This document shows, piece by piece, positions 8,169 to 62,752 of a stretch of 64,000 nucleotides of DNA. A model generated the notes under the pieces. That model was not told where the DNA came from. It saw only the letters and a program-made list of their open reading frames with translations, and searched no databases. Both the position numbers and the translations under genes were made by a program. This DNA comes from Harmothoe impar (taxonomy: Eukaryota; Annelida; Polychaeta; Phyllodocida; Polynoidae), in contig OX381708.1 in NCBI GenBank assembly GCA_947462335.1, positions 42,845,377 to 42,909,376 of the forward strand, read 5' to 3'. Positions within the stretch are counted from its first letter, which is position 1, and every line of letters starts with the position of its first letter.

Positions 8169-10177
8169 CAGTGTCTCAATGACACATTGTCCTTGCGTTC
8201 AAGATGCCTATGATGAGATGGATACATGTAGTGTCACCCCGGAGTGTCACCAATGCTTAATTCAACTAAATACCTGTTTCATTAGTGTAGGCCTACAGGT
8301 AGAATTGAATGCCACGATTCTATGTCCGCTAACTGAGTGGATCACAGTATGGTAGAGACGGTGCTATCCCATTTCCCTCCAGTGTAAAATTAAGGCGCTA
8401 TTACACTTTACACGCCCCATGTAAACCAATAATAAGATGTTCCTCCTTGCTCTGCGTCCAGCTGATTGCACGGTACATGTGCCAAGTCTTGTAGAGGCTA
8501 TACCACAGGTAGACTACTGCCTTGTGATACACAATGTCAGCTGAGCTGCTCATCACTGACAGGTCAGCGTGGTCTGAGCAGTTTGTATAGACTCCCGTAC
8601 ACACAGCTGATCCCACAGCTGGACACACTTATAATTAAAATCCAGGCTGTCCATGACAGATATTGGTTGTCGTGTAGCATGATAATACACACATGTACGT
8701 GCCATGTATAGGCGATTACATACCGCTATAGTGGCTATAGATGACGATAGTGGGTGTGTCTCCATTTATACCTGTCTTCCTCCAGTGCCAGCACAGCGTC
8801 TCAGTTCTCTACTACACAGGTAAATCAAGGCCACTCCCAGCCGTACAATACCTGCCATCCAATAAGCTCCTTACTCCAGTAGCCTATTACGGCATCTGCT
8901 GCTGTAACCCATGTATGGATACTGGTGGCATTGATGGAGCGTTGGCCTATCACATTCCCAGGGCTGACCTGTACCAGTCATGCGAGATCTACTGGTTATA
9001 TTGTCCAATATATACAAGAAAACAAAGCTTAGATTAATATCACAAATAAACAACCTCAATAATAATATAGAACAGCCATACTATGAGTATGTTACTAAAT
9101 TGTATGGGGTTCGCCTGCTTACATGGTTCAAGGCCTGCACTTAATACGTGGTACCTGATTGGTGATCAGCAGATCGATTAGGCATCAAAGGACCCTGACC
9201 AGCATGCAAGTGAAAGGTGAATGGGGGGGGGGGGGGGGTAGTTATGGGGGGAGTCATGTCTTGTGAAATGGGGGAGGGGTTCTCAGAACTACAAGCAGTA
9301 TATTGTAAAGAAATTGTGTACTCCTAAGAACACCATTGACCTCTTCTCAATTTTGACCCCCAAGAGGCATAGTGCTTGATCCATTTAGTTTTGATAACGG
9401 GCTTGTCCCCACGTTTGCTCTTTGTGAGGTAAGGGTATCTTGCGTATTTATTAATAGCGTCATGGCAATTGTCGTTTTTTTGTGAGGGGGGTGGGGGTCT
9501 TTTTTTTGGCAGAAATATTCACCCAACCCCTTTTTACCCATTCCATCTACCACCGTAACTCCGCCCTTTCCAATATCACAATAAATGACGCGTCCCTACG
9601 AAGATGGGAGGGGACAGGGACAGGAGGTGGAGGAGGCGGGGTGAGTGGTTTCCTCCAGGTGCTACACACAGGTAGGCGGCCAGGTGTAGCTCACCTGGCA
9701 CGCTTGTAACTCGGTGTGGGTGTCACCTGTAAGCTGCCCGCTGCGACATTAAGGTACAGGAGGACGGGGGCAATAAGATGCTGATAAAACATATATCAGT
9801 GAAGGCTGGGTAATCCTACTGGACAAGCACATGGGGAACAATTAGAGAGAAGAACCCATAGAGTACAGGCAGGCAATAAGGTGTAGGGAGAGCGATGGAG
9901 GAGAGGACAGGTAGGCATGCTTTGGGAGGAGGATCAAGATATATTAAAACCATAACACATTCCTGAATTATACTGAATGAATATTGGTATTGCATGTTGC
10001 GCTATTACATTAATGTATGACACGTGATGAAGGCATGACGGATTCTCAAATGATGGAAGATATTGATGCTACTAGTCTAATAGAGTTCTTGTTGTAACTG
10101 GAAGTACCGATGAGTACATACCCCACCTGGTGTTAGCTCCACTAACCATTTAGATGTATACTCACAGGCTCTAACTG
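8169..10177. other. intergenic, upstream of the large minus-strand gene
   Basis: No coding region is recognisable. The segment contains a G run near 9222-9238 and otherwise unremarkable sequence. The promoter of the 1409-residue gene would be expected near 8.2-8.6 kb, but I see no decisive core element. Confidence 0.4.
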
Positions 10178-10240
10178 GTGGCTTGTTCCAGAATTAGTCA
10201 GTAGTCATTAGAAATACTAACTAATTCTGGAACAAGCCAC
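10178..10240. repeat. near-perfect 26-bp hairpin
   Basis: The left arm (10178-10203) begins GTGGCTTGTTCCAGAATTAG. The right arm (10215-10240) is its reverse complement with one mismatch, and the loop is 11 nt. It could be a small foldback element or the fused ends of a MITE. Confidence 0.8.
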
Positions 10241-10601
10241 AGTGACCACCCTTCAGCCCCTGGTGATTGTTCCCATATGGTGTGAATTACAATTCTCATT
10301 CTCTTTTCTAATTCTGCCACACTTAATTTTATGCATTAGGTCCCAGGATGTTGCCAGTGAGGCCCCAGGTGGGGCTTCAATATGATCAGCCGTAGTGCCA
10401 TCTCTGACACCAAGCATACCTGTAGACCTACAGGTGTACAACCTTGTGTCAGGGGGAGTTTCGGTATCACAGAAATTAAACTTGACAAAGAAAAGTGTAT
10501 GTCTCTTGGATATGAGTTGTTTAATTAATCATGTAGAAAATTACAATGTATATATACGTATATGATAAATACCGTTTTACCATGGTCGTTTCACACAATG
10601 T

Positions 10602-23271: not shown

Positions 23272-23277
23272 GAGGGC
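23272..23277. repeat. left target-site duplication GAGGGC
   Basis: Directly abuts the AG of the Polinton left end. The same 6 bp occur at 33530-33535. Six-bp duplications are characteristic of Polinton integrases. Confidence 0.9.
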
Positions 23278-23698
23278 AGTAGTATAGTATGTATCGGAAC
23301 GGGACTATAGTTAACTACTGTTTATTACTCAATCGATATGCAGCCAATCAGAGGCCGCCATTTGGTCACGTGACCCGTTGCCATGGTAACGTGACCTACT
23401 TAGGGCTCTCAGCCAATCAGAAGCCAGCATTCTGGGTGACCTACTGACCTACTTAGAAGCTCTCAGCCAATCAGAGGCCGGCATTCTGGTAACCATGGTA
23501 ACGTGACCTACTTACGTCACGTGACCTACTTAGGCTCAGCCAATCAGAAGCCGGCATTCTGGTAACTAGGGTAACGTGACCTACTTAGGGTTTTGTTTGT
23601 AAACAACACCACGTGGCTCTCTTGTTTGTAAACAACACCACGTGACACGTGACTGTTTGTAAACAAACAACTTATATATAGAAAATAAACACAACAAG
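23278..23698 (+). repeat. Polinton left terminal inverted repeat
   Basis: It contains about four diverged tandem modules of 54-72 bp. Each has CAGCCAATCAGA (a CCAAT box) followed by GCATTCTGGTAACC-like and GTGACCTACTTA words, with TCACGTGA palindromes in two of them. The inner part has three GTTTGTAAAC forkhead-like sites alternating with CCACGTGG/CACGTGAC E-boxes. The right repeat carries the same array inverted, with a 17-bp insertion near its inner end. Confidence 0.92.
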
Positions 23699-23785
23699 TT
23701 CCATGTTATGTTAAAATTATATTTTCAAAAAAAAGCACATCTGTTACAGCGTCTATGTGTAACTACGCGCGTTCTCATTCAAACA

Positions 23786-24442
23786 CTATAACACTATCAT
23801 ACCGTAGCAGCAGCAGGTAGGACTGGAAGAAAAGCAAGCGCACGAGCAGAAGCGACGACACCATTTGCACCATCCGGCCGTCGCGTTGGTAGCCCTACTA
23901 CTCGTCGCGCGTTCAACTGGAGGTATAAGAGTGACAAATGACGATTCTTTGTCGACGCGACTGCTAACATCAGCAGCATCAGCAGCATCGGCAGCATCGG
24001 CAGCAGCATCGGCAGCAGCGGCAGCAGCCTCGGCAGCAGCGGTAGCAGCAGCAGCGGTAGCAGCAGTAGCGTGAGCATTAGCAACAACAGCAGCAGCGAC
24101 AGTAGCAAGGGCGGCAGAGCGGGCACTAGCAGCGTTATCAGCGGTGACATCGGCAGCCGCAACAGCATCAGCAGCAGCAGCGTCGGCATCGGTGGCATGA
24201 GTAGCTGCATCGGCGGCAGCAACAGCAGCAGTCACAGCCGCAGCGGCAACAACAACAACGTCATCACAACCAGCATCACTAACAGCCGCAGTAAATGCAG
24301 CAGTAGCACGCTGAGCAGCACTAGCAGCAGCAGTAGCAGAGGCTACAGCATCAGCTTCACATTCGCGCGCCGCTTCGTCATTCCGCTTCATGTCACGGTA
24401 GCAACTTTCCATCATGGGGATCTGCAAATTGAGGCGCGGTGC

Positions 24443-24508
<66 letters not shown>

Positions 24509-24511
24509 CAT
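23786..24511 (-). CDS. Ala-rich low-complexity frame in the PolB position
   Basis: This is a minus-strand frame of 241 codons from the ATG at 24511; it stays open a further 11 codons upstream. It begins with Met followed by about 20 Leu encoded by a (CTA)n microsatellite, then PPPAPRL. An Ala/Asp/Val-rich stretch encoded by GCA/GCT-type repeats follows, and the frame ends with a Cys-rich tail (WCKWCRRFCSCACF). A TATATAAG box lies 46 bp upstream. A second possible start is the MMESCYRD pair about 32 residues in. The polyleucine could act as a signal anchor if translated. The repeats also leave other frames open, so coding is uncertain. Nothing resembles a DNA polymerase. Confidence 0.4.
23968..24340. 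repeat. GCA/CAG-type trinucleotide repeat region
   Basis: Imperfect GCA/CAG triplets run through this segment and keep several frames open on both strands. They encode Ala-rich sequence on the minus strand and Ser/Ala-rich sequence on the plus strand. Confidence 0.85.
24451..24509. repeat. (TAG)n / (CTA)n microsatellite
   Basis: Nearly 20 perfect GTA/TAG triplets. They encode the polyleucine tract of the minus-strand frame. Confidence 0.95.
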
Positions 24512-24549
24512 GAACGATGATGACGATGCCGAATACGGTTTCACTCCCT

Positions 24550-24557
24550 CTTATATA
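24550..24557 (-). promoter_or_regulatory. TATA box of the minus-strand left-end gene
   Basis: TATATAAG on the minus strand, followed by GAGGGAG and then the first ATG 46 bp downstream. A start site about 30 bp after the box would leave a leader of about 15 nt. Confidence 0.5.
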
Positions 24558-25059
24558 CCCTTACTCCCCCCTTTTTTTCAAGCCACCGGCCAGCTGCCCC
24601 CTCACGGCAGGTCTTTAGATCAGCCTTAAGTCGCTTACTACGCGGCTCATCATCCCTCTAATCGCATTTTCCAGCCGCCGGCCGGCTGACTGCTGACGAC
24701 AGGAGAGGGTGATTTGTTTTTCTTTAGATTTAAGCCGCTTACCACACGCGCACCCTCTAGTCACAGACAGAGTGACAGAAAGGGAGGGGGTCGCTTTGTT
24801 CACGCTACCTGTAGTTGTTTTTCTATACACACGCTGAGCCCATGACCCGCTAATCCTTTATACAGGTAACACGCGTTCAACTAATTACTCTATTGTATGA
24901 CAGTCGGTACACGGATTTAATTTTAAACCACCTTCCCATCTGGATCCATGTCTGGCGGGGTGGAAGGATCCAGCTGAAAAGCGTGATTAGGGCTTTTGTT
25001 TCTCTTATGATAGCAGCAGGTCAGCATGCGACAGCTGAAAATGTCAGACTCGCCGCTCC
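24558..25059. promoter_or_regulatory. divergent intergenic control region of the Polinton
   Basis: About 500 bp lie between outward-facing TATA boxes. It contains a diverged tandem duplication: two blocks of roughly 110-120 bp at 24580-24670 and 24670-24770 share GCC(A/G)CCGGCC, CTTTAGAT and AAG(T/C)CGCTTAC words. This arrangement would drive the left-end gene leftwards and the virion module rightwards. Confidence 0.45.
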
Positions 25060-25067
25060 TATAAAAG
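25060..25067 (+). promoter_or_regulatory. TATA box of the rightward virion module
   Basis: TATAAAAG followed at once by ACTGAGATGCGTC. The box in front of the major capsid gene has the same AAAGACTG continuation. The distance to the first ATG (25288) is about 220 bp, so the leader is long and includes T-rich runs at 25208-25245. Confidence 0.6.
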
Positions 25068-25287
25068 ACTGAGATGCGTCTCTCTTTCCACACACCCTTC
25101 TACCATCGCCGCCGACACCGCCACCGCCGGCCAGCCGACCGCCGCCACCGCCTGCAGTCACCGCCATCACGCCAGCAGGGAATTTCGAGCTGAGTCTGCT
25201 TATTGCTTATTTTTTTTCTTTGAGCTTTTTTTTTTTTTTTTAAATTTTTATTTTCACTCAGTCTTTTTTGTTTCGGAGGAAAGAAAT

Positions 25288-25938
25288 ATGGCGCTGCAGA
25301 GGGCGCGAGTTTCTAAAAGACGGTCGCGCGAACAAAGTGCCCTCCTCAACTGCCCGGCTATTTTTTTATCTCAAAGGAGAGAGCGTCACGTAGTTGAGGT
25401 TCACGCATCTCTTGAAGCGTACCGAATTCTCGAGAAATGCAAAGCTGAGCGCCATCGTCGTTATACAAGAGCGGAAAAGGAAAACGTAGCGACATGGCCG
25501 AGAGCCGTCTTCTCAGAACAGTATTTACTCTACCATTGCATAACAGCCGCTCTCAGCGCCCCCACTCGTTGGGCGTTTCATGAAAAGAAAGAGCGCCGCT
25601 ACTCTCCTCACCCTGCCTCCTCTTATAAAGTGAGAATAAGTGCTATGAAACGATTCGACAAGCCGATCGGTTTCTTGGGAGCGACTGCAGCTCCCACTCG
25701 GTGGGCGCGCGTTGTGGCCGACGTGAACACGGTCTCTAAACGTTTCGACGTCGTCACTTGTTATCCCGCATATTGCAACGCAGCCGAATTGAAGAAGATA
25801 GGGACGCACTATTTTAAACCATACGCTCCAATATGTATTTGTCACCGCCGCGCTCACACGCCTTATTGCTTTTTCGAGACGATCGTGTCACAACACAGAA
25901 ATAGAAAAAAAAGCGGCAAAGCGACGAGCTTTGCCTAA
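25288..25938 (+). CDS. unrecognised basic 216-residue protein
   Basis: This is the first rightward gene of the element, starting at ATG after GGAAAGAAAT. It is strongly basic (many Arg/Lys/His). It contains an internal near-duplication: APTRWA at 91-96 and again at 135-140, each followed by KRFD (121-124 and 151-154). Cys residues at 158, 163, 183, 185 and 194 with H186 and H190 could form a metal-binding knuckle in the last third. The C-terminal Lys/Arg-rich tail resembles a nuclear localisation signal. I do not recognise the family. Its leading position, where Polintons otherwise have polymerase-side genes, makes it a candidate for a replication-linked or DNA-binding role, but that is inference. 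An 18-20 nt A tract follows the stop. Confidence 0.75.
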   Translation: MALQRARVSKRRSREQSALLNCPAIFLSQRRERHVVEVHASLEAYRILEKCKAERHRRYTRAEKENVATWPRAVFSEQYLLYHCITAALSAPTRWAFHEKKERRYSPHPASSYKVRISAMKRFDKPIGFLGATAAPTRWARVVADVNTVSKRFDVVTCYPAYCNAAELKKIGTHYFKPYAPICICHRRAHTPYCFFETIVSQHRNRKKSGKATSFA

Positions 25939-25946
25939 ATGATCAA

Positions 25947-25970
25947 AAAAAAAAAAAAAAAAAATTAATC
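25947..25970 (+). other. intergenic A tract followed by TTAA (copy 1)
   Basis: About 20 A residues then TTAATCTACC, between the 216-residue gene and the ATPase gene. A very similar A tract plus TTAACATCACTCTACC follows the integrase gene at 29394-29425. Confidence 0.7.
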
Positions 25971-26052
25971 TACCGACCGTTCGAGTGAGAAACACAGCAG
26001 ACAGTCAGACACACAACCGCTCTCTGACGCGTCCTGAAAAAAAACAAAAAAA

Positions 26053-26772
26053 ATGTCGAGTAGTAAAAGCAAACTCTTCACAGAAATTCATTTCGACGCT
26101 CGACTACAAGGACCCTTTAGTTGTATCATTAGCGGTCCGTCGGGTTGTGGAAAATCGCGCTTGGTGGATCAATTTCTGAGCGACGTGAACAATTTGGTCA
26201 CGCCGCCGGTGGAAAAGACTTTTTACCATTACGGCGAGTGGCAACCTCTGTTTGAAAAAATGCAAAATCAGTACGGTGTGGAATTCAGAGAAGGTCTTCC
26301 TAGCAAAGAGTCTATAGCGGGAGACGTGGAAGTAGCAGAAGACGCTTTACGACCACACACTCTACTGATATTGGACGATCTGATGAGCAGTTCCAATCAG
26401 CAAGTGGTAGCCGACATCTTTACTAAATACTCGCATCACTGGAACGTGAGCGTCATATACATCACTCAGAACCTATTCCAGAAATCACCCGACTTTCGAA
26501 CTATGAGTCTGAACGCTCACTACATGATCGTTTTCAAGAACCCGCGCGACATGGGGCAAATAGCTAGTCTGTCTCGCCAGGTGTTTCCCTCCAACGCGGC
26601 GGCCCTCTCTAGTATATTTACCCATGAACTCAAGCGACCTCACTCATACCTCCTTCTGGACTTCAAGCAGTCAACACCTGACGATCTGAGAATACGCTCC
26701 TCTTTGACGTCCATACACTCTCAGCTAGTATTTGTACCGCTAGACAAAAAAAAGAACAAGAGAAAGCAGTAG
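26053..26772 (+). CDS. ATP: A32/FtsK-HerA-like genome-packaging ATPase
   Basis: 239 residues, the normal size for Polinton packaging ATPases. The Walker A P-loop is GPSGCGKS at residues 28-35. Walker B is LLILDDLM at about 104-111 (D108/D109), followed by a Ser/Asn/Gln sensor-like stretch (SSSNQQ). In this family the ATPase pumps DNA into preformed capsids. The gene has an A-rich leader (AAAAACAAAAAAAATG). Its stop lies 5 bp before the next ATG, so the genes are packed as in a polycistronic array. No frameshift or motif loss is seen. Confidence 0.93.
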   Translation: MSSSKSKLFTEIHFDARLQGPFSCIISGPSGCGKSRLVDQFLSDVNNLVTPPVEKTFYHYGEWQPLFEKMQNQYGVEFREGLPSKESIAGDVEVAEDALRPHTLLILDDLMSSSNQQVVADIFTKYSHHWNVSVIYITQNLFQKSPDFRTMSLNAHYMIVFKNPRDMGQIASLSRQVFPSNAAALSSIFTHELKRPHSYLLLDFKQSTPDDLRIRSSLTSIHSQLVFVPLDKKKNKRKQ

Positions 26773-26777
26773 CAAAA

Positions 26778-27110
26778 ATGTCTTCTCATCTACTCGAAAG
26801 ACACTTTGGTACTCTCAAGCACTTAGCTAAGTGCTCGCCAAAGGACTGCTCGCATCTAATAGACTCTGGAAGCGACGATCTGATCGCAGCATTGAGTGAG
26901 ATCTGTCACAATTTACTGGTAGGGAACATCCCGCTCAGCGACAAACAACTGGACAAGCTTCGAGAATCGGCTGACGTGTTGAGGGAGGTCGGCAAAAAAT
27001 CTACGCCCATCAAGAAAAAGAGACGTGTCTTGGTGCAAGAGGGAGGTTTCCTCATTCCGGCTCTCATAGGGATGGCCTTACCGCTTATAAAGAGCATTCT
27101 CCGTATATGA
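26778..27110 (+). CDS. small conserved virion-module protein, amphipathic C-terminus
   Basis: 110 residues. The N-terminal half is helical. It is followed by a Lys/Arg cluster (KKSTPIKKKRRVLV, about 73-86) and a hydrophobic or amphipathic tail that starts at GGFLIPALIGMALP and runs to the end. Small proteins of this layout, with a basic patch followed by GGFL and a hydrophobic tail, sit beside the ATPase in many animal Polintons/adintoviruses. They have been compared with adenovirus core or membrane-active peptides. The exact function is unknown. Its stop codon overlaps the next ATG (ATGA at 27107-27110), suggesting coupled or leaky translation. Confidence 0.82.
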   Translation: MSSHLLERHFGTLKHLAKCSPKDCSHLIDSGSDDLIAALSEICHNLLVGNIPLSDKQLDKLRESADVLREVGKKSTPIKKKRRVLVQEGGFLIPALIGMALPLIKSILRI

Positions 27111-28270
27111 GACACCTCATTCGACACCTACTCGCCGACAGTACCACCGCTACCGCCACCGCCAGCGTCATCGCCACCGTCGTCCCCATGACGGACTCAG
27201 AGCAGCAACAACACTACAAACGCTTAGCGCTCGTGGATCCTGAGACGCTCTACAAATCATCACGAGCAGGTCTACTTCATCATGTGCCCGCTGCTGCTAC
27301 TACTAGCGCTGCTACTACTGCAGTCGCTGCTGCTAGTACTTCTACTGCTCCAAACCTTCCTCCTCTTCCTGATGAGCGTACTGAAAAGAACGAGAGTTCC
27401 GCTCCTGCCACCGCCGCCCGCCTACCTGCCGATATGGCCTATTACCACAAGCAGGCAGAACAGTCCCTTCATCCCGACGCGGCCTTGCACCAGGTGCTAC
27501 AGTTTATCTACAGGGACTTGGACTTAGTGTTGAACGATCCCACTTTGGAATCGCGCGAGAAAATGTTGAAATACCGAAGGTTGTTGAATAGATTGCAATT
27601 TTTTCTCGCGAATCCCAACAACAGCAACATCTCTTCGTCCTACACTTCGCCCCCGGCTCACCTCCGTCAGTCTGCTGAAGAAGCCAGCGCGTCCCTACTT
27701 GAGCGGTTGGTGAACCAAGTTCCCAAGAGGAATCGCACCCGGACCGTGGCGCTGTACAAACAATTGGAGAAATCCGGTGTGGTCAAGTGGAACGAGGACG
27801 GTGCGGTGCGCGAGATGTCGGGTCGGAGAATACCACCTGAGCATCGCATCAACATAGTGGACTTACTGAACGACGCCGCCAGGTTCAGGAAGACGGCGCC
27901 CAGACCGGCGGGCTACTCTCCGTTCACAAAAGCGCTGCGCGAAGCAGTTCCCACAGACTCCTTGATCGGAAACCATCTGTATAAAGCGAGCGGACCTGGC
28001 CAAAGCTTGGACACACGGCTTGCTGACAGAGGTCGGAAACGACCGAGCTTCGACTCGGAAGAAGGAGAAGCAGCAGCAGCAGCAGTAGCAGCAGCAGACT
28101 CTTCTCTCCAGGTGGACGATCAATCCTCTGACGACGAGGAGGGCAGTGAACTTTTCCAAACTCCGACTTCCTATAGGAGCGCGGGGAGTAAGAAAAGGAA
28201 AGGGCGCAACCGCCTAGCGGCGTCGTCGTCGTTCACGCCCTCAACAAGTCGACGATGGGCAAACCAGTGA
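27107..28270 (+). CDS. conserved Polinton virion-module protein of unknown function
   Basis: 387 residues from the ATG overlapping the previous stop. A later Met (residue 28, nt 27188; MTDSEQQQHYKRL) resembles the usual start of this family, and the first 27 residues are Thr/Ala-rich. A Ser/Thr/Ala/Pro-rich linker (about 60-108) is followed by helical segments and a conserved-looking middle block: LERLVNQVPKRNRTRTVALY and then GVVKWNED at about 199-231, and INIVDLLNDA plus LIGNHLY at about 248-292. The tail is acidic (SSDDEEGS) and then basic, partly encoded by GCA repeats. Proteins with this middle block accompany capsid genes in animal Polintons. I cannot assign an activity. It overlaps the integrase start by 16 nt in another frame. 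Confidence 0.8.
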   Translation: MRHLIRHLLADSTTATATASVIATVVPMTDSEQQQHYKRLALVDPETLYKSSRAGLLHHVPAAATTSAATTAVAAASTSTAPNLPPLPDERTEKNESSAPATAARLPADMAYYHKQAEQSLHPDAALHQVLQFIYRDLDLVLNDPTLESREKMLKYRRLLNRLQFFLANPNNSNISSSYTSPPAHLRQSAEEASASLLERLVNQVPKRNRTRTVALYKQLEKSGVVKWNEDGAVREMSGRRIPPEHRINIVDLLNDAARFRKTAPRPAGYSPFTKALREAVPTDSLIGNHLYKASGPGQSLDTRLADRGRKRPSFDSEEGEAAAAAVAAADSSLQVDDQSSDDEEGSELFQTPTSYRSAGSKKRKGRNRLAASSSFTPSTSRRWANQ

Positions 28271-29391
28271 AGAGACTGACCAAGAAGGAAAAAGAAAAGA
28301 AGCGCGTAGTAGCTAGATATACCGACGTCAAAGCGCCCTCCAGTTTCACTAGCGTGACTAAACTCCAGAAACATCATTTTCGCCACCTAAACCCGGCCGT
28401 CATCCGAGATGCTTTAGTGTCGCTGGACGCCTACACTAAACATAAACCCATTCGGAGAAAATTCGCAAGGAACAAGACTATAACCGGCGCAATCGATCAG
28501 CAGTGGCAGATAGATCTGATGGACATGCAGGCTTTGGCGTCTCACAACGACCGCTTCCGGTACGTGGTGACGGCGATCGACGTTTTCTCTAGGTACGCGT
28601 GGGCCGTTCCCATTAAATCCAAGAGCGGCGCTGATGTTACCGAGGCCTTCCGAAAGATGACAGACACTGGCGAGAGACGACCGCGCACTGTTCAGACAGA
28701 CAAGGGGAAAGAGTTTTTGAACAAGATCTTTCAAGATCACTTGAAGAGCGAGGGCATAGAGTTTTTCACTGGCGAGAACGACGACATCAAAGCTAGTCTA
28801 GTGGAGCGCTTGAACCGCAGTCTGAAGGAGAAGCTGTGGCGTTATTTTACACACAAGCGCACGTATCGCTACGTGGACGTACTGCACCATGTAGTGCCTT
28901 CTTACAATCGCACTCACCACAAGACGTTGAAAATGGCGCCGGCTCAAGTCAGCTCGGAAAACAGCGAAACAGTTTTCTACCGACAAGATCTCCCAACTAA
29001 CAAACAAATCGACGAAATATGGAAAAAGAAGAAAAAAACAAAGACGTCCGCCGTCGACGTCATCGCTCCGGGTGACAGAGTGAGGATGTTGAGAACTAAA
29101 GGCGCCTTCGACAAAGGGTACGAGGGAAACTGGCGCGAGGAAGTGGTCGACGTTGCTAAGACGTTGGGAAGCAGAGGGTTCGAGCTGAAAGACGACAAGG
29201 GCGAGGAGATAAAAGGCGTCTTCTACCCGGAAGAGGTTCAGAAGGTGTACAAGAGTCGTTACGACAACAACTACCTGATAGACGAGGTGTTGCGCCGCAA
29301 GACCGTCGACAGTAAAGAGTTAGCTTTCGTACGTTGGTTAGGTTACGACGACAAGTTCAACGAGTGGATCCCCGTCAAAAAAATAACGTAG
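28255..29391 (+). CDS. INT: retrovirus-like integrase with C-terminal chromodomain
   Basis: 378 residues. The rve core has the DDE set at D87 (QWQIDLMDM), D149 (VQTDKGKEF) and E184 (ASLVERLN). It is followed by YNRTHHKTLKMAPA, an SH3-like segment (GDRVRMLRTKG) and a C-terminal chromodomain at about 340-378 (YLIDEVLRRK, then FVRWLGYDDKFNEWIPV). In Polintons this enzyme joins the AG/CT termini to host DNA with a 6-bp duplication, which matches the GAGGGC flanks. The chromodomain is thought to steer integration to modified chromatin. All catalytic residues are present, so the protein looks functional. Confidence 0.95.
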   Translation: MGKPVKRLTKKEKEKKRVVARYTDVKAPSSFTSVTKLQKHHFRHLNPAVIRDALVSLDAYTKHKPIRRKFARNKTITGAIDQQWQIDLMDMQALASHNDRFRYVVTAIDVFSRYAWAVPIKSKSGADVTEAFRKMTDTGERRPRTVQTDKGKEFLNKIFQDHLKSEGIEFFTGENDDIKASLVERLNRSLKEKLWRYFTHKRTYRYVDVLHHVVPSYNRTHHKTLKMAPAQVSSENSETVFYRQDLPTNKQIDEIWKKKKKTKTSAVDVIAPGDRVRMLRTKGAFDKGYEGNWREEVVDVAKTLGSRGFELKDDKGEEIKGVFYPEEVQKVYKSRYDNNYLIDEVLRRKTVDSKELAFVRWLGYDDKFNEWIPVKKIT

Positions 29392-29393
29392 AC

Positions 29394-29425
29394 AAAAAAA
29401 AAAAAAAAAATTAACATCACTCTAC
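29394..29425 (+). other. intergenic A tract followed by TTAA (copy 2)
   Basis: About 17 A residues then TTAACATCACTCTACC, between the integrase and the minor capsid gene. It is the second occurrence of the same composition seen at 25947-25970. Confidence 0.7.
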
Positions 29426-29439
29426 CTAGCAACAGCTCT

Positions 29440-30528
29440 ATGGAGTATTATCCTGACAACAGCTTGACGTCTTTCCGAACTCACTTCGACTCGCCGCTCC
29501 TTCTGCCCGAAGCGTACGAAGCGGCTCTGACTGAGATCATCCTCCCTACAGAATGGACTAACGTGCACGACGACGACTTGATCATCGTTGTTCCTCTGCG
29601 CACCAAGGGTTCGCTAGAGGAGGCGATCAAGGTTTTAAAAGACACTAAATTCGCCGAAAGAAGAAAACCGCAGGTAGACTGGAGGGGAATGAAAAACGCG
29701 AACGGTCTGAGCAAGCTAACGTTCAGCTCAAAATACCCGCTGAGCTGGAAGGAAGCGAGCTATGTAACGGTGGAAGAGATATCAGACACGTCGGAAGAGC
29801 AGCGATTGAAACCGGAAACAAAAAGGTTCAAGAGAGAGGTCGACTTGAGACAGACGAATGCCGTATACAAGCAGTTCTTGTCCCCGGCGGTGAAGAAGAA
29901 GGCGATCAGCGATCAAGCAAGACAGATGATCGAAGAGATGGAGAAAGTCATGGGAGTGCGCAGTTTCATGCCAAACATATTCGAGATACCTCCTATTTTC
30001 ACCGGAAGCAACCACACCCTAGTCGAGCGCTTGAGTGAGACGTTGCGAGATGACAGACTAGAGGGCGCCAGCTTCTTGCTCAAACCGATGGGGATCTTAT
30101 CGTACGACTCCAAGACGAAACGCGTCACCATCAAACCGCCGAGACACTGTGCTGTCCTGCTGACTCAGCATCTCGCATGCGTTCTAGGCTTCGGAGAGAA
30201 GACGTGTTTCGCATCGCCGACTACCGGCGCCTACTCGATGGATGTTTTCGGGGACGTGCACTCTGTGTACATATACACCGACATGATCCAGGAGAGACGT
30301 GTGGGCGACATGCAAGTGCCGCTGTTACGCTGCGTCGCGGTGGACAGAGGCGGAAAGCGTCGAGGTGGCGTGCAAGCTATCAGTTTTCCCCATTTGGATT
30401 ATTTCCCCTTGAAATCCAAGAGGTTTACCGAGGTCGGCATCTATTTAAGAGACCGATCCGGTCATTCCATCCCATTCGGTAGAGGCGAGGTGACCGTGAC
30501 ACTTCATCTGAGACCTATTGAGCGCTGA
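29440..30528 (+). CDS. mCP: minor capsid (penton-like) protein
   Basis: 362 residues. The N-terminus (MEYYPDNSLTSFRTHFDSPL, then EAALTEIILPTEW) and the C-terminal block (VYIYTDMIQERRVGDMQVPL, then GHSIPFGRGEVTVTLHLR) match the single-jelly-roll minor capsid proteins of animal Polintons. These form the pentameric vertices of the predicted icosahedral particle. An insertion of charged, helical sequence (about 110-190) lies between the two conserved parts. The frame is complete and follows an A-tract leader. The next gene starts 11 bp after the stop. Confidence 0.88.
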   Translation: MEYYPDNSLTSFRTHFDSPLLLPEAYEAALTEIILPTEWTNVHDDDLIIVVPLRTKGSLEEAIKVLKDTKFAERRKPQVDWRGMKNANGLSKLTFSSKYPLSWKEASYVTVEEISDTSEEQRLKPETKRFKREVDLRQTNAVYKQFLSPAVKKKAISDQARQMIEEMEKVMGVRSFMPNIFEIPPIFTGSNHTLVERLSETLRDDRLEGASFLLKPMGILSYDSKTKRVTIKPPRHCAVLLTQHLACVLGFGEKTCFASPTTGAYSMDVFGDVHSVYIYTDMIQERRVGDMQVPLLRCVAVDRGGKRRGGVQAISFPHLDYFPLKSKRFTEVGIYLRDRSGHSIPFGRGEVTVTLHLRPIER

Positions 30529-30539
30529 AAGAGAGAAAA

Positions 30540-30965
30540 ATGATGCGTCAACGCGTTCCGTACTTTCCACCCAGGCGCACCGTCGGCAGAGGGTACAGCG
30601 ATTACTACAACGCGCAGCTGGGCAACGGCATCAACGTGTACAGCGGGCGCTCTTTCCAGAGCGGGCACGGTTTGGGCGGCGCTCTGTTAGGTCTGATGCG
30701 CTCGGCTACCCCGCTATTGAAGTCGGTGGGAAAAACGCTGCTCCGCGCCGGTGTGGGCGTAGCTAAAGATGTGCTGGCGGGTCGGACTTTAAAGAGCAGC
30801 GTGAAAGACCGAGGCGCAGGCGCTCTGAAGAGACTGGCGAGTACGGCGTTCTCGGGAAGAAAGACGAGTGTCGCGTCTAAGAAAGGGTCGAAACGTCGCC
30901 GGCATTCTCCTCAGACGGGCGGTGGCTCTTGCAAGAGACGTAGAGGGGATGTATTCGACCGGTAA
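30540..30965 (+). CDS. small basic Gly-rich virion-module protein
   Basis: 141 residues (M1-M2 doublet). A Tyr/Gly-rich N-terminus (YFPPRRTVGRGYSDYY, about 8-23, then GLGGALLGL) is followed by an amphipathic segment (MRSATPLLKSVGKTLLRAG, about 53-71, and GVAKDVLAGR). The C-terminus is Lys/Arg-rich (KKGSKRRRH, CKRRRG). Proteins of this layout lie between the minor and major capsid genes in animal Polintons and have been compared with adenovirus pVI/pX-type internal proteins. A membrane-active or DNA-condensing role is plausible but inferred. Confidence 0.8.
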   Translation: MMRQRVPYFPPRRTVGRGYSDYYNAQLGNGINVYSGRSFQSGHGLGGALLGLMRSATPLLKSVGKTLLRAGVGVAKDVLAGRTLKSSVKDRGAGALKRLASTAFSGRKTSVASKKGSKRRRHSPQTGGGSCKRRRGDVFDR

Positions 30966-30982
30966 GCGCCTAGGCGTTCAGG

Positions 30983-30990
30983 TATAAATA
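30983..30990 (+). promoter_or_regulatory. TATA box of the major capsid gene
   Basis: TATAAATA followed by AAAAGACTGGAGGCGG, 62 bp upstream of the capsid ATG. The AAAGACTG continuation is shared with the promoter at 25060. The overlapping AATAAA could also serve as a poly(A) signal for the upstream gene cluster. Confidence 0.6.
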
Positions 30991-31044
30991 AAAAGACTGG
31001 AGGCGGCCGGCGTCAGTCTGTCGTCCGCGTGAAGAGAGAACACA

Positions 31045-32352
31045 ATGGCTTACGTACACGAGAGCAGTAACGAGTGCGCGCTCTCTGAGCTCGACCTGCA
31101 CACCGTAGCGCCGACTCAGACTACTATCTTAAAGTCGTCTTTCCTGGGGATAGAAACAAAAAACTCTTTAGAGGATGGAGGTAACATAAATTTCACCATC
31201 AACAAGTCGCAAGAGTACACAGACCTGAACGAGAATTACCTTCATCTGGAATGTCAAGTGCTGAAACCGAACGGAGCGGCGCTCGAGGACACCGACGTGG
31301 TAGCTCCGGTGAACAACTTGGCTCACTCGCTCTTCAAAGACGTCCAAGTCTCCATCGGCGGTTTCAAAGTGTCTGGCAACACCGAGACCTACCCTTACCG
31401 AGCTTACTTGGAAGGGTTACTCAACTACAACAAAGACGTGAAGGCCGGCGTCATGAGCGCCCAGGGGTGGCATGAAGATACGCCTGGTCACTTTGACGCG
31501 TTGAGTAACGCGAATGCGGGGTACAAAGAGCGCAGGAAGCTAATCTCCAACAAGCGCTTTTCGCTGATGGCGCGACTGCACTTTGACCTGGCTCATCAAC
31601 CAAAGCTCATCGTTGGAGAGACAGAAATCAATCTCACTCTGAAACAGGCAGCGCCCTCTTTCTATCTGATGTGCGCCGCTGACGGAGGCTACAGCTTGAA
31701 GATCTACAAAGCAAAGCTCTACGTGCGACGCGTGTTGGTGGCAGACGCTGTAGCGGAAACGCACGAGAGAGCGGTGATAGAACACGGACCCTTCGACTAC
31801 CCGGTGAACAGAGTGGAGGTGACGACGTACGCCATCCCTCAAGGTAACAGAGATCACAGCTACACGCACTCCAACACAGGCCAGCTTCCCAAGTCGATGA
31901 TGATTTGCTTCCTAGACCACGACGCCTTCAACGGTAGCTACACCAAGAACCCGTTCGAGATGAAGCATTACGACATCAGCTCGCTTCAAGTGATAGTGAA
32001 CGATCAGAAAGTGCCGAACGACGCCTACGTGCCCGACTTTAAGACCAAAGCGGCCGTGAGAGAGTACTTGGCGCTACACACGGAAACGGGGATGTACGAG
32101 GGCGCGCGCTCCTGCGGTATTTCATACGATCAATTCCTGAACGGTTACACGGTGTTCCCCCTCGATTTAACCCCAGACAGATCGCACGACGGGTGTCGCG
32201 TGAACCTTATAAGAGCGGGTCAGCTGAGGGTGGAAGTCAGTTTCCGCTCGGCGCTACAAGCGACAACAACGGTGCTACTCTACTTGGTGTACGACAACGT
32301 CGTCGAGCTGACCCGAGATCGACACCCCATCACCGACTACCACATGAACTGA
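31045..32352 (+). CDS. MCP: major capsid protein (double jelly-roll, hexon-like)
   Basis: 435 residues. The sequence is characteristic of the animal Polinton major capsid family, often annotated in genomes as F54H12.2-like. Features include the N-terminal ECALSELDLHTVAPTQTTI, the NFTINKSQEYTDLNENYLHL strand region, LFKDVQVSIGG, TYPYRAYLEGLLNY, the central linker IPQGNRDHSYTH and the C-terminal strand set ending in LYLVYDNVVELTRDRHPI. It would form the trimeric capsomers of the particle. The frame is intact and of normal length for the family. It has its own TATA box. Confidence 0.95.
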   Translation: MAYVHESSNECALSELDLHTVAPTQTTILKSSFLGIETKNSLEDGGNINFTINKSQEYTDLNENYLHLECQVLKPNGAALEDTDVVAPVNNLAHSLFKDVQVSIGGFKVSGNTETYPYRAYLEGLLNYNKDVKAGVMSAQGWHEDTPGHFDALSNANAGYKERRKLISNKRFSLMARLHFDLAHQPKLIVGETEINLTLKQAAPSFYLMCAADGGYSLKIYKAKLYVRRVLVADAVAETHERAVIEHGPFDYPVNRVEVTTYAIPQGNRDHSYTHSNTGQLPKSMMICFLDHDAFNGSYTKNPFEMKHYDISSLQVIVNDQKVPNDAYVPDFKTKAAVREYLALHTETGMYEGARSCGISYDQFLNGYTVFPLDLTPDRSHDGCRVNLIRAGQLRVEVSFRSALQATTTVLLYLVYDNVVELTRDRHPITDYHMN

Positions 32353-32381
32353 AGACAAGACAGCGGTACTTAGCGTATCGT

Positions 32382-32834
32382 ATGAACACGCTTGAAATAA
32401 GCAGAGTGTTGAAGGAAAACGTTCACACAAAACATCGTTTCCTGGGTGTTTTCTCTTGTGACACTATTCCGAAGCACCCTATCAAAGACACTTGTTTCGT
32501 GAGCAACACAGATCCGCAACATTTACCAGGTCAGCATTGGGTGGCGTTTTACGTGTCGAGCACGGGTGAAGTGTACTACTTTGATTCCTTCGGCTTACCG
32601 CCGCTGAGTGCGGAGTTCTTGTCTTTCGTGGAACGCTCTGCTCCGTTCAAGTGGCAAAGAAACCGCGTTCAACTACAAGACACTTCTGCTGACACCTGTG
32701 GACCTCATTGCGTTCATTTCCTAATTGAAGCATGTCGAACAAGAAACCCCAAGAAGTGCGTCATGCGCATGAGCAAAATCCCAAAGCTGAGCGACCGGAC
32801 AGTGAGTCAGAAGCTATCGATGATGCTGTTGTGA
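32382..32834 (+). CDS. PRO: adenain-like cysteine protease
   Basis: 150 residues from the ATG at 32382. The frame stays open further upstream inside the capsid gene, but the region before this Met has no family features. The Ulp1/adenain catalytic set is visible: H52 (GQHWVAFY), D68 (YYFDSFG), a Gln at 98 and C106 (DTCGPHC). In this family the enzyme matures virion proteins during assembly. The start lies 30 bp after the capsid stop. It is shorter than adenovirus protease (about 205) but within the range of Polinton proteases. Confidence 0.92.
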   Translation: MNTLEISRVLKENVHTKHRFLGVFSCDTIPKHPIKDTCFVSNTDPQHLPGQHWVAFYVSSTGEVYYFDSFGLPPLSAEFLSFVERSAPFKWQRNRVQLQDTSADTCGPHCVHFLIEACRTRNPKKCVMRMSKIPKLSDRTVSQKLSMMLL

Positions 32835-33031
32835 CGGGTTGTTGCGATGGCGGCCGTTTCATGGAGGCAAAGATTCTCTGCCTTGCCGAAATGGTGTTGG
32901 ATTTATCCAAAGTCGTGCAATGTCTATTGGAGAGAAGTCGTCCGGGGTGTAGTGGTGCGAGTGACGGCGGCGTGAGACTTTGCGGCCTGTTGGGTTGTTG
33001 CAAATCGAAGAAGCGAGCTAAAAAAGTATAA
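32732..33031 (+). CDS. possible small overlapping ORF after the protease
   Basis: 99 codons in a different frame. The first 103 nt overlap the protease end and the rest fill the space before the right repeat. An alternative start at 32861 would give 57 residues (MEAKILCLAEMVLDLSKVVQ...). The C-terminus is Cys- and Lys-rich (GLLGCCKSKKRAKKV). No family is recognised. It could be a real accessory protein or chance open sequence. Confidence 0.4.
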   Translation: MSNKKPQEVRHAHEQNPKAERPDSESEAIDDAVVTGCCDGGRFMEAKILCLAEMVLDLSKVVQCLLERSRPGCSGASDGGVRLCGLLGCCKSKKRAKKV

Positions 33032-33059
33032 ACTTGTGTGTTTTTTTGATTGAAATGAA

Positions 33060-33072
33060 AATAAAGAATAAA
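33060..33072 (+). terminator. poly(A) signals at the right end of the virion module
   Basis: Two AATAAA hexamers (33060-33065 and 33067-33072), 30-40 bp after the last possible stop codon and just inside the right inverted repeat. Confidence 0.6.
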
Positions 33073-33091
33073 ATGAAAAAAAAGAAATTAT

Positions 33092-33529
33092 CTTGTTGTG
33101 TTTTTATTTCTATATATAAGTTACATAACTTTTTTGTTTGTTTGTTTACAAACAGTCACGTGTCACGTGGTGTTGTTTACAAACAAGAGAGCCACGTGGT
33201 GTTGTTTACAAACAAACCCTAAGTAGGTCACGTTACCCTAGTTACCAGAATGCCGGCTTCTGATTGGCTGAGCCTAAGTAGGTCACGTGACGTAAGTAGG
33301 TCACGTTACCATGGTTACCAGAATGCCGGCCTCTGATTGGCTGAGAGCTTCTAAGTAGGTCAGTAGGTCACCCAGAATGCTGGCTTCTGATTGGCTGAGA
33401 GCCCTAAGTAGGTCACGTTACCATGGCAACGGGTCACGTGACCAAATGGAGGCCTCTGATTGGCTGCAGGTCGATTGAGTAATAAACAGTAGTTAACTAT
33501 AGTCCCGTTCCGATACATACAATACTACT
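33092..33529 (-). repeat. Polinton right terminal inverted repeat
   Basis: Reverse complement of 23278-23698 with only a few substitutions and a 17-bp insertion near the inner end. It contains the same array of CCAAT, CACGTG and GTAAACA motifs. It ends ...ATACTACT and is followed directly by GAGGGC. Confidence 0.92.
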
Positions 33530-33535
33530 GAGGGC
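33530..33535. repeat. right target-site duplication GAGGGC
   Basis: Perfect copy of 23272-23277. Confidence 0.9.
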
Positions 33536-46914: not shown

Positions 46915-47505
46915 GAGTGGTCAGTAACATTACTAGATGTCTACTATAGAGGGATGGACACCATTTGTCACTTATGTGAGGAGTAGCCAGTAACATTACT
47001 ATGTAGAGGGATGGACACCATTTGTTAGTGTAAGGAGTGGTCAGTAACATTACTACATGTAGAGGGATGGACACCATTTGTTAGTGTAAGGAGTGGTCAG
47101 TAACATTACTACATGTAAAGGGATGGACACCATTTGTTAGTGTAAGGAGTGGTCAGTAACATTACTACATGTAGAGGGATGGACAGCATTTGTTAGTGTA
47201 AGGAGTGGTCAGTAACATTACTACATGTAGAGGGATGGACACCATTTGTTAGTGTAAGGAGTGGTCAGTAACATTACTACATGTAAAGGGATGGACACCA
47301 TTTGTTAGTGTAAGGAGTGGTCAGTAACATTACTACATGTAGAGGGATGGACAGCATTTGTTAGTGTAAGGAGTGGTCAGTAACATTACTACATGTAGAG
47401 GGATGGACACCATTTGTTAGTGTAAGGAGTGGTCAGTAACATTACTGCATGTAGAGGGATGGACACCATTTGTCAGAAATACAAGGAGTGGTCAGTGATC
47501 TTACT
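46915..47505. repeat. 56-bp minisatellite with 168-bp higher-order unit
   Basis: About ten copies of a 56-bp unit beginning AGTAACATTACTACATGTAG. Variants AAAGGG and GACAGC recur every third unit (for example AAAGGG at 47111 and 47279, exactly 168 bp apart), showing that a trimer was itself duplicated. Confidence 0.92.
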
Positions 47506-50417: not shown

Positions 50418-50772
50418 CCACCCCGGTGTTGGGTACATACATTTAGGGAGTGTGCCACATAATATGAGTTAAATCTAATCTAGCTATTAGGGTTTAGGAA
50501 ATAGAACCACAGCTGATGATCTTACAAGGTTTAGCGTATCTAGAATGTGAAGCGCCCTACTAAGTAAGAACGGAATGACTTGCACAGGAATGCAAGTGGC
50601 TAGTTCATTTGCGTCTGGTTCTAACCTCATTCCATTTTGGAAGCATGCGGAAGATTCAAGCCATATGTAGTGTAATAATGTGATACCGACCATTCCATGT
50701 TCTGATCACATGTCGTCCCCTCAGTGGAAAAGGATTGTAACACACAGTCGTCAGACCTACAGTTACAACATT

Positions 50773-51408
50773 CAGTCCCCACTCTCCATGCACTACTCAC
50801 ACGCCCCATTCTGGTCCAGTCCCCACTCTCTATGCACTACTCACACGCCTCATATCCTGAGTCAGTCCCCACTCTCCATGCACTACTCACGCGTCCCATA
50901 TCCTGAGTCAGTCCCCACTCTCCATGCACTACTCACGCGTCCCATATCCTGAGTCAGTCCCCACTCGCCATGCACTACTCACACGCCTCATATCCTGAGT
51001 CAGTCCCCACTCTCCATGCACTACTCCCACGCCTCATACCCTGAGTCAGTGCCCACTTTCCACGCACTACTCACACGCCTCATATCCTGAGTCAGTCCCC
51101 ACTCTCCATGCACTACTCACGCGTCCCATATCCTGAGTCAGTCCCCACTCGCCATGCACTACTCACACGCCTCATATCCTGAGTCAGTCCCCACTCTCCA
51201 TGCACTACTCCCACGCCTCATACCCTGAGTCAGTGCCCACTTTCCACGCACTACTCACACGCCTCATATCCTGAGTCAGTCCCCACTCTCCATGCACTAT
51301 TCACACGTCCCATACCCTGAGTCAGTCCCCTCTCTCCATGCACTACTCACACGCCCCATACCCTGAGTCAGTCCCAACTCTCCATGCACTACTCACACGC
51401 CCCATATC
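50773..51408. repeat. 46-bp minisatellite with 184-bp higher-order unit
   Basis: Nearly 14 copies of a 46-bp unit beginning CAGTCCCCACTCTCCATGCA. A four-unit block marked by GCCCACTTTCCACGC recurs 184 bp apart (51051 and 51235). Confidence 0.92.
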
Positions 51409-61518: not shown

Positions 61519-61768
61519 AATGATAACTGGACAAGAGAGTTTTATATATTGGTATTTTATCCTGTGAAGTTCATGACATGGTTATACAATTTACATGTTT
61601 TACATGTTTTATATGAGTACAAGAAAATACCAGTGGTACATAATTTCATACGAGATTAATACATTTCATGTTAACAACAATGAGTGGGGGAACATCTACC
61701 CGGTATACGTGTATACAACATGATGTTGATGGATTTCTGAGTCCATAGTTAAACCTGAGTGTTTATGG
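61519..61768 (-). repeat. B1 split direct repeat
   Basis: Begins right at the end of the recombinase frame. The last six bases of that frame, including its TAA, lie inside the repeat. Confidence 0.9.
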
Positions 61769-62614: not shown

Positions 62615-62752
62615 CGCGAAATTGAGGTACGTTGTGGCATGTGTTATTCTATTGTTCTGTGTCGACTGAGAGATGGCTGCATTGTATGATGTTATAGCTT
62701 GTTGACCGAGGGGAAGGCCTGTAAGATATATTGCATGACATGAGTTTACAGG

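What the first reader, a model, noticed from the sequence alone, without database searches (positions are those of the whole stretch)
23278..33529. Compact Polinton-type provirus with a full virion and integration set but no DNA polymerase B
Seen: intact AG/CT termini, inverted repeats, 6-bp GAGGGC duplication and open frames for ATPase, integrase, major and minor capsid, protease and small virion proteins in 10.25 kb. Known: canonical Polintons/adintoviruses are 15-20 kb and carry a protein-primed family B polymerase. None of the frames here is long enough or shows its motifs. Inference: either a packaged satellite-like form that depends on polymerase in trans, or a lineage with another replication strategy. 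That every remaining gene is open argues against simple decay.
Basis: partly seen in the sequence, partly recalled or inferred. Interest (0 to 1): 0.88.

Follow-up and report, generated by a model that had tools for sequence, protein, structure and literature searches.

The report
Polymerase-less Polinton lineage, very many copies
A 10.25-kb virus-like element that keeps shell-building and integration genes but has no recognisable DNA polymerase gene is one of roughly 1,560 closely similar copies in what is probably an animal genome, where thousands of further end sequences match its own, which suggests a virus-like parasite that borrows its polymerase.

Summary
Observation confirmed. Window 23278-33529 is a 10,252-bp element with AG/CT ends, ~393-nt inverted repeats, a 6-bp GAGGGC duplication and open frames for ATPase, rve integrase, protease, MCP and smaller proteins; no PolB is found, also with a profile built from PolBs of the same genome. 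It is not a private deletion: genome-wide 43-mer counts are 1,557 for MCP, 1,566 for integrase, 3,579 for the inner end. Of 20 other copies checked, 14 measure 9.6-10.5 kb (interiors mostly unread, lengths leave little room for PolB) and 6 show the same layout plus insertions or a duplication, without PolB in what was read; 7 of 7 testable copies have different 6-bp duplications. Open PolB genes exist in this genome; the two families counted have 9 and 22 copies. The outer 43 nt occurs 13,736 times, so by arithmetic about three quarters of these ends belong to something else. Best reading: a young PolB-less Polinton-like lineage replicated in trans. The helper is not identified, packaging not testable. 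New variant of a known kind.

The parts
23272..23277 (.). left target site duplication GAGGGC
23278..23670 (+). left terminal inverted repeat; outer ~86 nt shared with another element type; dense in CACGTG, CCAAT and TGTTTGT/TGTTTAC sites
23671..25287 (.). left region without a recognised gene; low-complexity Ala-rich antisense frame 23786-24544 of doubtful status
25288..25938 (+). ORF216, conserved orphan protein of this lineage
   Evidence: 3 homologues at 95/82/79%, alignment; 1,425 43-mer copies in the genome
25939..25970 (.). poly-A tract; six other copies carry ~200-300 bp here that this copy lacks
26053..26772 (+). genome-packaging-type P-loop ATPase
   Evidence: Adeno_IVa2 E 1.7e-5 over cut-off; PF00910 RNA_helicase E 2.2e-4 slightly over; Pox_A32 E 3.3e-4 below; Walker A and B
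26778..27110 (+). small protein, 110 aa, hydrophobic C-terminus
   Evidence: 30 syn and 7 nonsyn cells
27107..28270 (+). 387-aa protein; resembles a conserved Polinton protein by recall only
   Evidence: no Pfam match
28255..29391 (+). retrovirus-type integrase with chromodomain-like tail
   Evidence: PF00665 E 1e-13; Chromo E 0.0015, below cut-off; D87, D149, E184; 1,566 43-mer copies
29440..30528 (+). 362-aa protein, probable penton/minor capsid by position
   Evidence: 8 homologues, 49-94% identity over 63-100% of the query; fold not tested
30540..30965 (+). 141-aa basic protein, probable small virion protein by position
31045..32352 (+). major capsid protein
   Evidence: 42 homologues at 27-94%, one labelled Major capsid protein; 1,557 43-mer copies
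32382..32834 (+). adenain-like cysteine protease
   Evidence: Peptidase_C5 E 1.6e-4 on frame 32193-32831; His and Cys residues listed
33138..33529 (-). right terminal inverted repeat
33530..33535 (.). right target site duplication GAGGGC

Best explanation
It belongs to a young, highly amplified lineage of Polinton/adintovirus-type elements that has kept integrase, packaging ATPase, protease and capsid genes but has no recognised polymerase. Its copies are made by a protein-primed DNA polymerase supplied in trans that recognises the outermost end (inferred); the element's own integrase then inserts the new DNA with 6-bp duplications (inferred from the duplications and the gene). Virions may carry it between cells (inferred from constraint on some virion genes). 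Shown: the PolB-less layout, its copy number, its small divergence, and open PolB genes elsewhere in the genome. Not shown: which PolB, and packaging.
For: No PolB in the window by host-built HMM nor by tblastn at E 0.01 in the 40 copy-derived loci at hand, with 30 of 30 PolB loci hit as positive control. 40 of 40 scored left ends (of 1,077 candidates) are 100% identical over 423 bp, the window copy among them. Right ends in 14 of 20 others at 9,636-10,509 bp; 7 of 7 with both flanks at hand have their own 6-bp duplications; the other 6 show the same layout with insertions or a duplication. 1,557 MCP and 1,566 INT 43-mers, reversed-pattern controls 0; 84 of 90 exact INTs on C1 have an exact MCP 2.28-2.41 kb downstream. 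29 pairs of listed inner ends, 0 over 14 kb. Sampled copies differ by 0.2-0.8%. Fewer amino-acid changes than neutral in ATPase, 110-aa protein, integrase and MCP. Two PolB families have full open frames in 8 of 9 and 14 of 20 loci, N/S 0.64 and 0.52.
Against: No PolB-bearing element with these ends was found. On C1, 4 PolB loci lie over 76 kb from any listed exact outer end, and 16 on C1-C2 lie 47 kb or more from a listed inner end; only exact matches are listed, and PolB element ends were never read. PolB loci with 1.5-kb flanks share no DNA with the window. Constraint is weak or absent for the 362-aa protein (0.78), protease (0.81) and 141-aa protein (3.71). One 20.1-kb copy (C1:3023555-3043628) has ~9.6 kb extra between ORF216 and integrase that was not read. 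The ATPase also matches PF00910 slightly over its cut-off.
Confidence: 0.6

Rival explanations
1. Multipartite virus: this is the virion and integration segment, and other ~9-10-kb classes with the same outermost end are further segments, one of which carries a polymerase that was not seen.
For: 13,736 copies of the 43-nt outer end against 3,579 with this element's inner end and 2,778 with the other known inner end; 35 of 36 listed pairs of the second end type are 8.66-10.24 kb (median of the 36: 9,427); five listed outer-end pairs are 9.1-9.24 kb with no exact MCP.
Against: PF03175 gave 695 first-look candidates, fewer than the ~1,390 elements that the second end type implies; the one element of that type at hand has no frame over 333 aa and no match to this element's proteins or the host PolBs; end-sharing non-autonomous parasites would look the same.
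Confidence: 0.15
2. The element moves by its integrase alone with host replication (behaviour of some integrase-type DNA transposons, recalled); the capsid genes are passengers.
For: Integrase open; thousands of further ends with other contents behind them look mobilised through the ends alone.
Against: ATPase, 110-aa protein and MCP show constraint between sublineages; Polinton integrases are thought (recalled) to insert new extrachromosomal copies.
Confidence: 0.15
3. The element encodes an unrecognised replication protein, for example ORF216 or the 387-aa protein, that recruits a host polymerase.
For: ORF216 is conserved at 79-95% in three outside relatives and has 1,425 43-mer copies; PF00910 matches the ATPase slightly over cut-off.
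Against: No Pfam match for ORF216 or the 387-aa protein; the ATPase fits Adeno_IVa2 better; structure prediction unavailable.
Confidence: 0.07
4. A private internal deletion or decay product of a canonical Polinton.
For: Size under 15 kb; ~200-300 bp missing relative to six other copies.
Against: About 1,560 copies by MCP and INT counts; the 7 testable insertions are independent; frames open.
Confidence: 0.03

Closest known systems
Maverick/Polinton (class Polintoviricetes), e.g. vertebrate Mavericks of PMC8097293
   Same: AG/CT ends (AG/CT recalled), inverted repeats, 6-bp duplications, rve integrase, ATPase, protease, capsid gene, intronless frames
   Different: Intact vertebrate ones are 12,723-24,620 bp with pPolB in the first module and at most 38 intact copies per genome (passages); here 10.25 kb, no PolB, about 1,560 copies
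Adintoviruses (PMC11071296, section 16 read)
   Same: Integrase with C-terminal chromodomain-like tail, adenovirus-like virion gene set
   Different: Defined there by an OTU-bearing PolB plus Hexon; no PolB here
Meldviruses lacking PolB and integrase (PMC11071296)
   Same: Virion genes without PolB
   Different: Described as lacking recognisable PolB and integrase; Meld19810 has a primase-helicase and tyrosine recombinase (legend). Here the rve integrase stays and no replicase is recognised
Polinton-like viruses (PMC11071308 passages; PMC10120064 passages)
   Same: MCP-bearing elements; PLVs mostly lack pPolB and rve integrase, and many protist elements lack a detectable polymerase
   Different: PLVs mostly encode other replication proteins; protist insertions generally 15-30 kb; here a compact, near-identical lineage with rve integrase
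Virophages and PgVV-type satellites
   Same: Would work alike if a helper supplies replication
   Different: Helper there is a giant virus; here the candidate helpers are resident PolB-bearing elements; dependence not tested

Membership tests
Maverick/Polinton | AG...CT ends, inverted repeats, 6-bp target duplication | tested here: met
Maverick/Polinton | retrovirus-type integrase with chromodomain | tested here: met
   rve E 1e-13; chromodomain weak, E 0.0015, 18.8 bits against cut-off 25.1; D-D34-E
[quoted passage not shown]
   hmmscan listed no PF03175 for two true PolBs either, so the host-built profile and frame lengths carry the weight
Maverick/Polinton | packaging ATPase and adenain-like protease | tested here: met
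   Adeno_IVa2 24.3 bits against 21, Peptidase_C5 21.9 against 21.3
Maverick/Polinton | double jelly-roll MCP | tested here: inconclusive
   homologues, one labelled Major capsid protein; no PDB match by profile, single-sequence search best E 0.012 to an unrelated enzyme; structure prediction off
Maverick/Polinton | single jelly-roll penton | not testable with these tools
   362-aa frame has homologues; PDB profile search best E 0.17, unrelated; structure prediction off
Maverick/Polinton | size 15-20 kb | tested here: not met
   10,252 bp; 14 other copies 9.6-10.5 kb; 15-20 kb
Adintovirus | OTU-bearing PolB | tested here: not met
   definition
Satellite virus | replication depends on a helper | not testable with these tools
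   no replicase recognised; no helper with matching ends identified
Bidnavirus-like multipartite virus | another segment with the same ends carrying PolB | tested here: inconclusive
   same outer end on other classes; contents unread except one element without PolB
Deletion derivative or decayed Polinton | parent with PolB between the same ends | tested here: not met
   20 copies checked, no PolB in what was read, 14 judged by length; 29 listed inner-end pairs, 0 over 14 kb; one 20.1-kb copy with ~9.6 kb unread, no listed PF03175 match there

The most novel reading that the evidence does not exclude
A three-tier parasite chain or multipartite endogenous virus in one genome: low-copy PolB-bearing elements replicate a PolB-less but capsid- and integrase-bearing lineage, which in turn mobilises (and perhaps packages) thousands of ~9-kb elements that share only the outer end and carry other genes.
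Probability: 0.25. Interest if true: 0.9.

Novelty: new variant of a known kind. Interest (0 to 1): 0.74.

Why it matters
Polintons were described as self-synthesising because they encode their own polymerase (term seen). A capsid- and integrase-bearing lineage without it that still reached about 1,560 closely similar copies would show that the polymerase is a shareable function and that common outer ends may suffice for replication in trans. It gives a natural case, probably in an animal, for testing virophage-like dependency between endogenous viruses and for asking why some virion genes stay under constraint.

Tried and rejected
PolB in the left 2.4 kb: none by HMM, tblastn or frame length. 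Private deletion: rejected by copy counts. Pfam silence as main proof: dropped, because hmmscan also failed to list PF03175 for two true PolBs though the same family found them in the genome search. Related contigs in viral contigs: 5 scans, no confirmed relative. Peptidase_C5 search of the genome: 0 matches, uninformative since its controls were also silent. Pfam scans of frames of the nested element: nothing over cut-off. PDB searches of its 287-aa frame and of the MCP and 362-aa profiles: nothing significant. A structured RNA in the ORF216 region: folded, not pursued once homologues showed a protein. Rfam and tRNA scans of the window: none. Host species: not identified; 'animal' is inferred from species-named MCP relatives. 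My notebook says 9 end pairs contain MCP; the recount is 8.
Full report
Observation. The left end begins AG at 23278, the right end finishes CT at 33529, and GAGGGC stands on both sides. The inverted repeats are two blocks of 317 and 82 nt, each 99% complementary. Pfam gives an adenovirus IVa2-like ATPase (PF00910 RNA_helicase also slightly over its cut-off, Pox_A32 below), an rve integrase with a weak chromodomain tail, and an adenain-like protease. The 435-aa frame has 42 homologues at 27-94% identity; the species-named ones come from a sea urchin, a sea cucumber and a limpet, the limpet one labelled major capsid protein. The 362-aa frame has 8 homologues.

No polymerase. The longest stop-free frame in the element is 439 aa. 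A profile made from 30 PolB loci of the same genome finds nothing below E 3.3 in the window. tblastn of those PolBs against the 40 copy-derived loci at hand gives no hit at E 0.01 while hitting 30 of 30 PolB loci. A caution: hmmscan of two true PolBs did not list PF03175, so Pfam silence alone would not have been proof.

Copies. The window lies in a 1.51-Gb assembly. The left 423 bp gave 40 scored matches of 1,077 candidates, all 40 at 100%, one being the window copy. This is the most alike slice, not a random sample. For 20 of the other 39 I fetched the place where the right end should be: 14 have it, at lengths 9,636-10,509 (median 10,430). Their interiors were mostly not read. In 7 of these 14 both flanks were at hand, and 7 of 7 have matching, mutually different 6-bp duplications. 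The other 6 show the same layout, enlarged, as far as read (for 5 of them the first ~1.4 kb was seen only in the 423-bp match; in one the right end was not reached): one holds a nested copy of the same element with its own duplication CACGTC, one a 4.8-kb insertion with a reverse-transcriptase-like frame (LINE-like by recall) and a ~70-bp loss, one a 9.57-kb element with related ends (duplication CGGGCC), one a tandem duplication, two have insertions of about 1.1 and 0.6 kb.

Counts. 43-mers with up to 3 mismatches, reversed-pattern controls all 0: outer end 13,736, this element's inner end 3,579, MCP 1,557, integrase 1,566, ORF216 1,425, second inner end 2,778, a 287-aa frame of the nested element 2,306, PolB family F1 9, PolB family F2 22. 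The counts are whole, but for the large ones only the first 100 places are listed, all exact. On C1, 84 of 90 exact integrases have an exact same-strand MCP 2,283-2,410 bases downstream; the window has 2,397. By arithmetic about 1,560 elements of 10.4 kb are some 16 Mb, near 1% of the genome.

Length of elements with these ends. Of 100 listed inner ends, 29 adjacent pairs are under 40 kb: 17 at 10.0-10.6 kb, 7 shorter (5.95-8.9 kb), 5 at 10.6-13.7 kb, none above 14 kb. Of 100 listed outer ends, 22 pairs are under 40 kb and 8 contain an exact MCP. Seven of these 8 are 10.3-11.0 kb. The eighth is 20.1 kb, and its MCP, integrase and ORF216 places show about 9.6 kb extra between ORF216 and integrase; it was not read, and no PF03175 match is listed there. 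Pairs of 23.2, 23.4 and 29.7 kb without MCP may be unrelated ends.

Age and selection. The sampled copies differ from each other by 0.20% (protease to tail, 12 copies), 0.67% (MCP, 4), 0.63% (integrase, 7) and 0.77% (right repeat, 19); the window copy stands on average 1.0-1.7% from them and has private changes, a sublineage of its own. Changes against the window copy, synonymous/nonsynonymous, with observed N/S over neutral N/S: ATPase 48/22 (0.15), 110-aa 30/7 (0.08), integrase 46/45 (0.31), MCP 80/94 (0.40), ORF216 8/12 (0.51), 387-aa 72/125 (0.64), 362-aa 49/112 (0.78), protease 19/47 (0.81), 141-aa 3/28 (3.71). These are cells, many being one inherited change counted several times, so they show a tendency: constraint for ATPase, the 110-aa protein, integrase and MCP, little or none for the last three. 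Some copies have a new stop or a small indel in one gene or another.

Polymerase sources. PF03175 matched 129 places from 83 scored of 695 candidates. Among the 30 loci fetched, family F1 has 9 and F2 has 20; full open frames are found in 8 of 9 and in the 14 of 20 that I chose, the rest being shorter or interrupted. The 8 and 14 differ among themselves by 0.77 and 1.30% and show N/S of 0.64 and 0.52, so PolB genes of recent age that look functional are present. PolB loci with 1.5-kb flanks share no DNA with the window. The distances to listed ends (4 PolB loci, 16 on C1-C2; two more on C3 fall outside the listed part) speak against PolB lying in elements with these exact ends but cover few loci.

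A wider family of ends. The nested element in L069/L057/L070 shares the outer ~86 nt at 94-98% and then differs. Its inner repeat carries GGCGGGAA (E2F-like by recall) and CACGTG sites far above shuffles, while CCAAT is not enriched there; this element's repeat carries CACGTG, CCAAT and TGTTTGT/TGTTTAC sites above shuffles (the palindrome CACGTG is counted on both strands). It has no match to this element's proteins or to the host PolBs at E 0.1. Its end type gives 36 listed pairs with a median of 9,427 bp, 35 of them between 8.66 and 10.24 kb, none holding an exact MCP. The 287-aa frame lies 1.7-2.1 kb from such an end in 21 of 22 exact cases, but only 2 of 35 exact pairs contain it exactly, so at least two element types seem to share this end. 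Five listed outer-end pairs of 9.1-9.24 kb have no exact MCP. Integrase and MCP counts agree with each other and are far below half the outer-end count, so most elements with this end seem to lack this integrase; copies diverged beyond 3 mismatches would be missed.

Mechanism. Shown: a real, abundant PolB-less lineage of small divergence with integration scars. Inferred: polymerase in trans, because protein-primed replication starts at element ends (recalled) and open PolBs are present; insertion by the element's integrase; mobilisation of other end-sharing elements by it. Not tested: virions, helper identity, extrachromosomal forms.

Literature. Passages of PMC8097293: intact vertebrate Mavericks carry pPolB and are 12.7-24.6 kb. 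Passages of PMC4028283: Polinton-like elements under 10 kb were discarded as incomplete; nine elements without MCP also lacked protease and ATPase, the converse of this case. Section 16 of PMC11071296 and passages: genomes with adenovirus-class virion proteins lacking recognisable PolB and integrase. Passages of PMC10120064: many protist elements lack a detectable polymerase. Passages of PMC11071308: PLVs mostly lack pPolB and rve integrase. Passages of PMC10328495 were background. Other papers were seen as search listings only. Searches for 'non-autonomous Polinton/Maverick' (0 papers), 'lacking PolB' variants with Polinton (2 papers, both on Sulfolobales polymerases) and helper/trans terms (1 paper, not opened) gave no description of such a lineage in the library held; subscription papers and Repbase are not covered.

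Verdict. It fails two defining Polinton features, PolB and size, so it is not filed as a canonical Polinton but as a PolB-less relative that works like one up to replication. New variant of a known kind.

Noticed in passing
L069 7267-8001, L057, L070 1-7732 (G000:C4:71226966-71236532): A 9,567-bp element nested in a copy of this lineage, with nearly the same outer ~86 nt, its own ~620-nt inverted repeats, a CGGGCC duplication and a 287-aa frame whose 43-mer is found 2,306 times in the genome.
   Followed up: partly
L069 7267-7886: Its inverted repeat holds repeated GGCGGGAAATTCAAA units (E2F/CHR-like by recall) and GGTCACGTGACC palindromes, far above shuffles, which could tie expression to host S phase.
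   Followed up: partly
window 25943-25970; L061 1241-1514: Six other copies carry ~200-300 bp here; in L061 and L063 it holds a TCC run and a short hairpin. The window copy lacks it.
   Followed up: partly
G000:C1:3023555-3043628: A 20.1-kb copy of this lineage with ~9.6 kb extra between ORF216 and integrase; content unread.
   Followed up: no
window 61763-62752 (-): A 329-aa open frame that looks like a tyrosine recombinase by recalled motifs; Pfam gave no hit.
   Followed up: no
window 3939-8198 (-): A 1,419-aa stop-free frame, perhaps a large host exon; no Pfam domain over cut-off.
   Followed up: no
window 50772-51408 and 46947-47473: Minisatellites with 46-bp (13.9 copies) and 56-bp (9.4 copies) units.
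   Followed up: no
L010 and L022: PolB proteins of ~1,180 aa for which hmmscan does not list PF03175 although the family search of the genome does; a warning about negative Pfam scans.
   Followed up: partly
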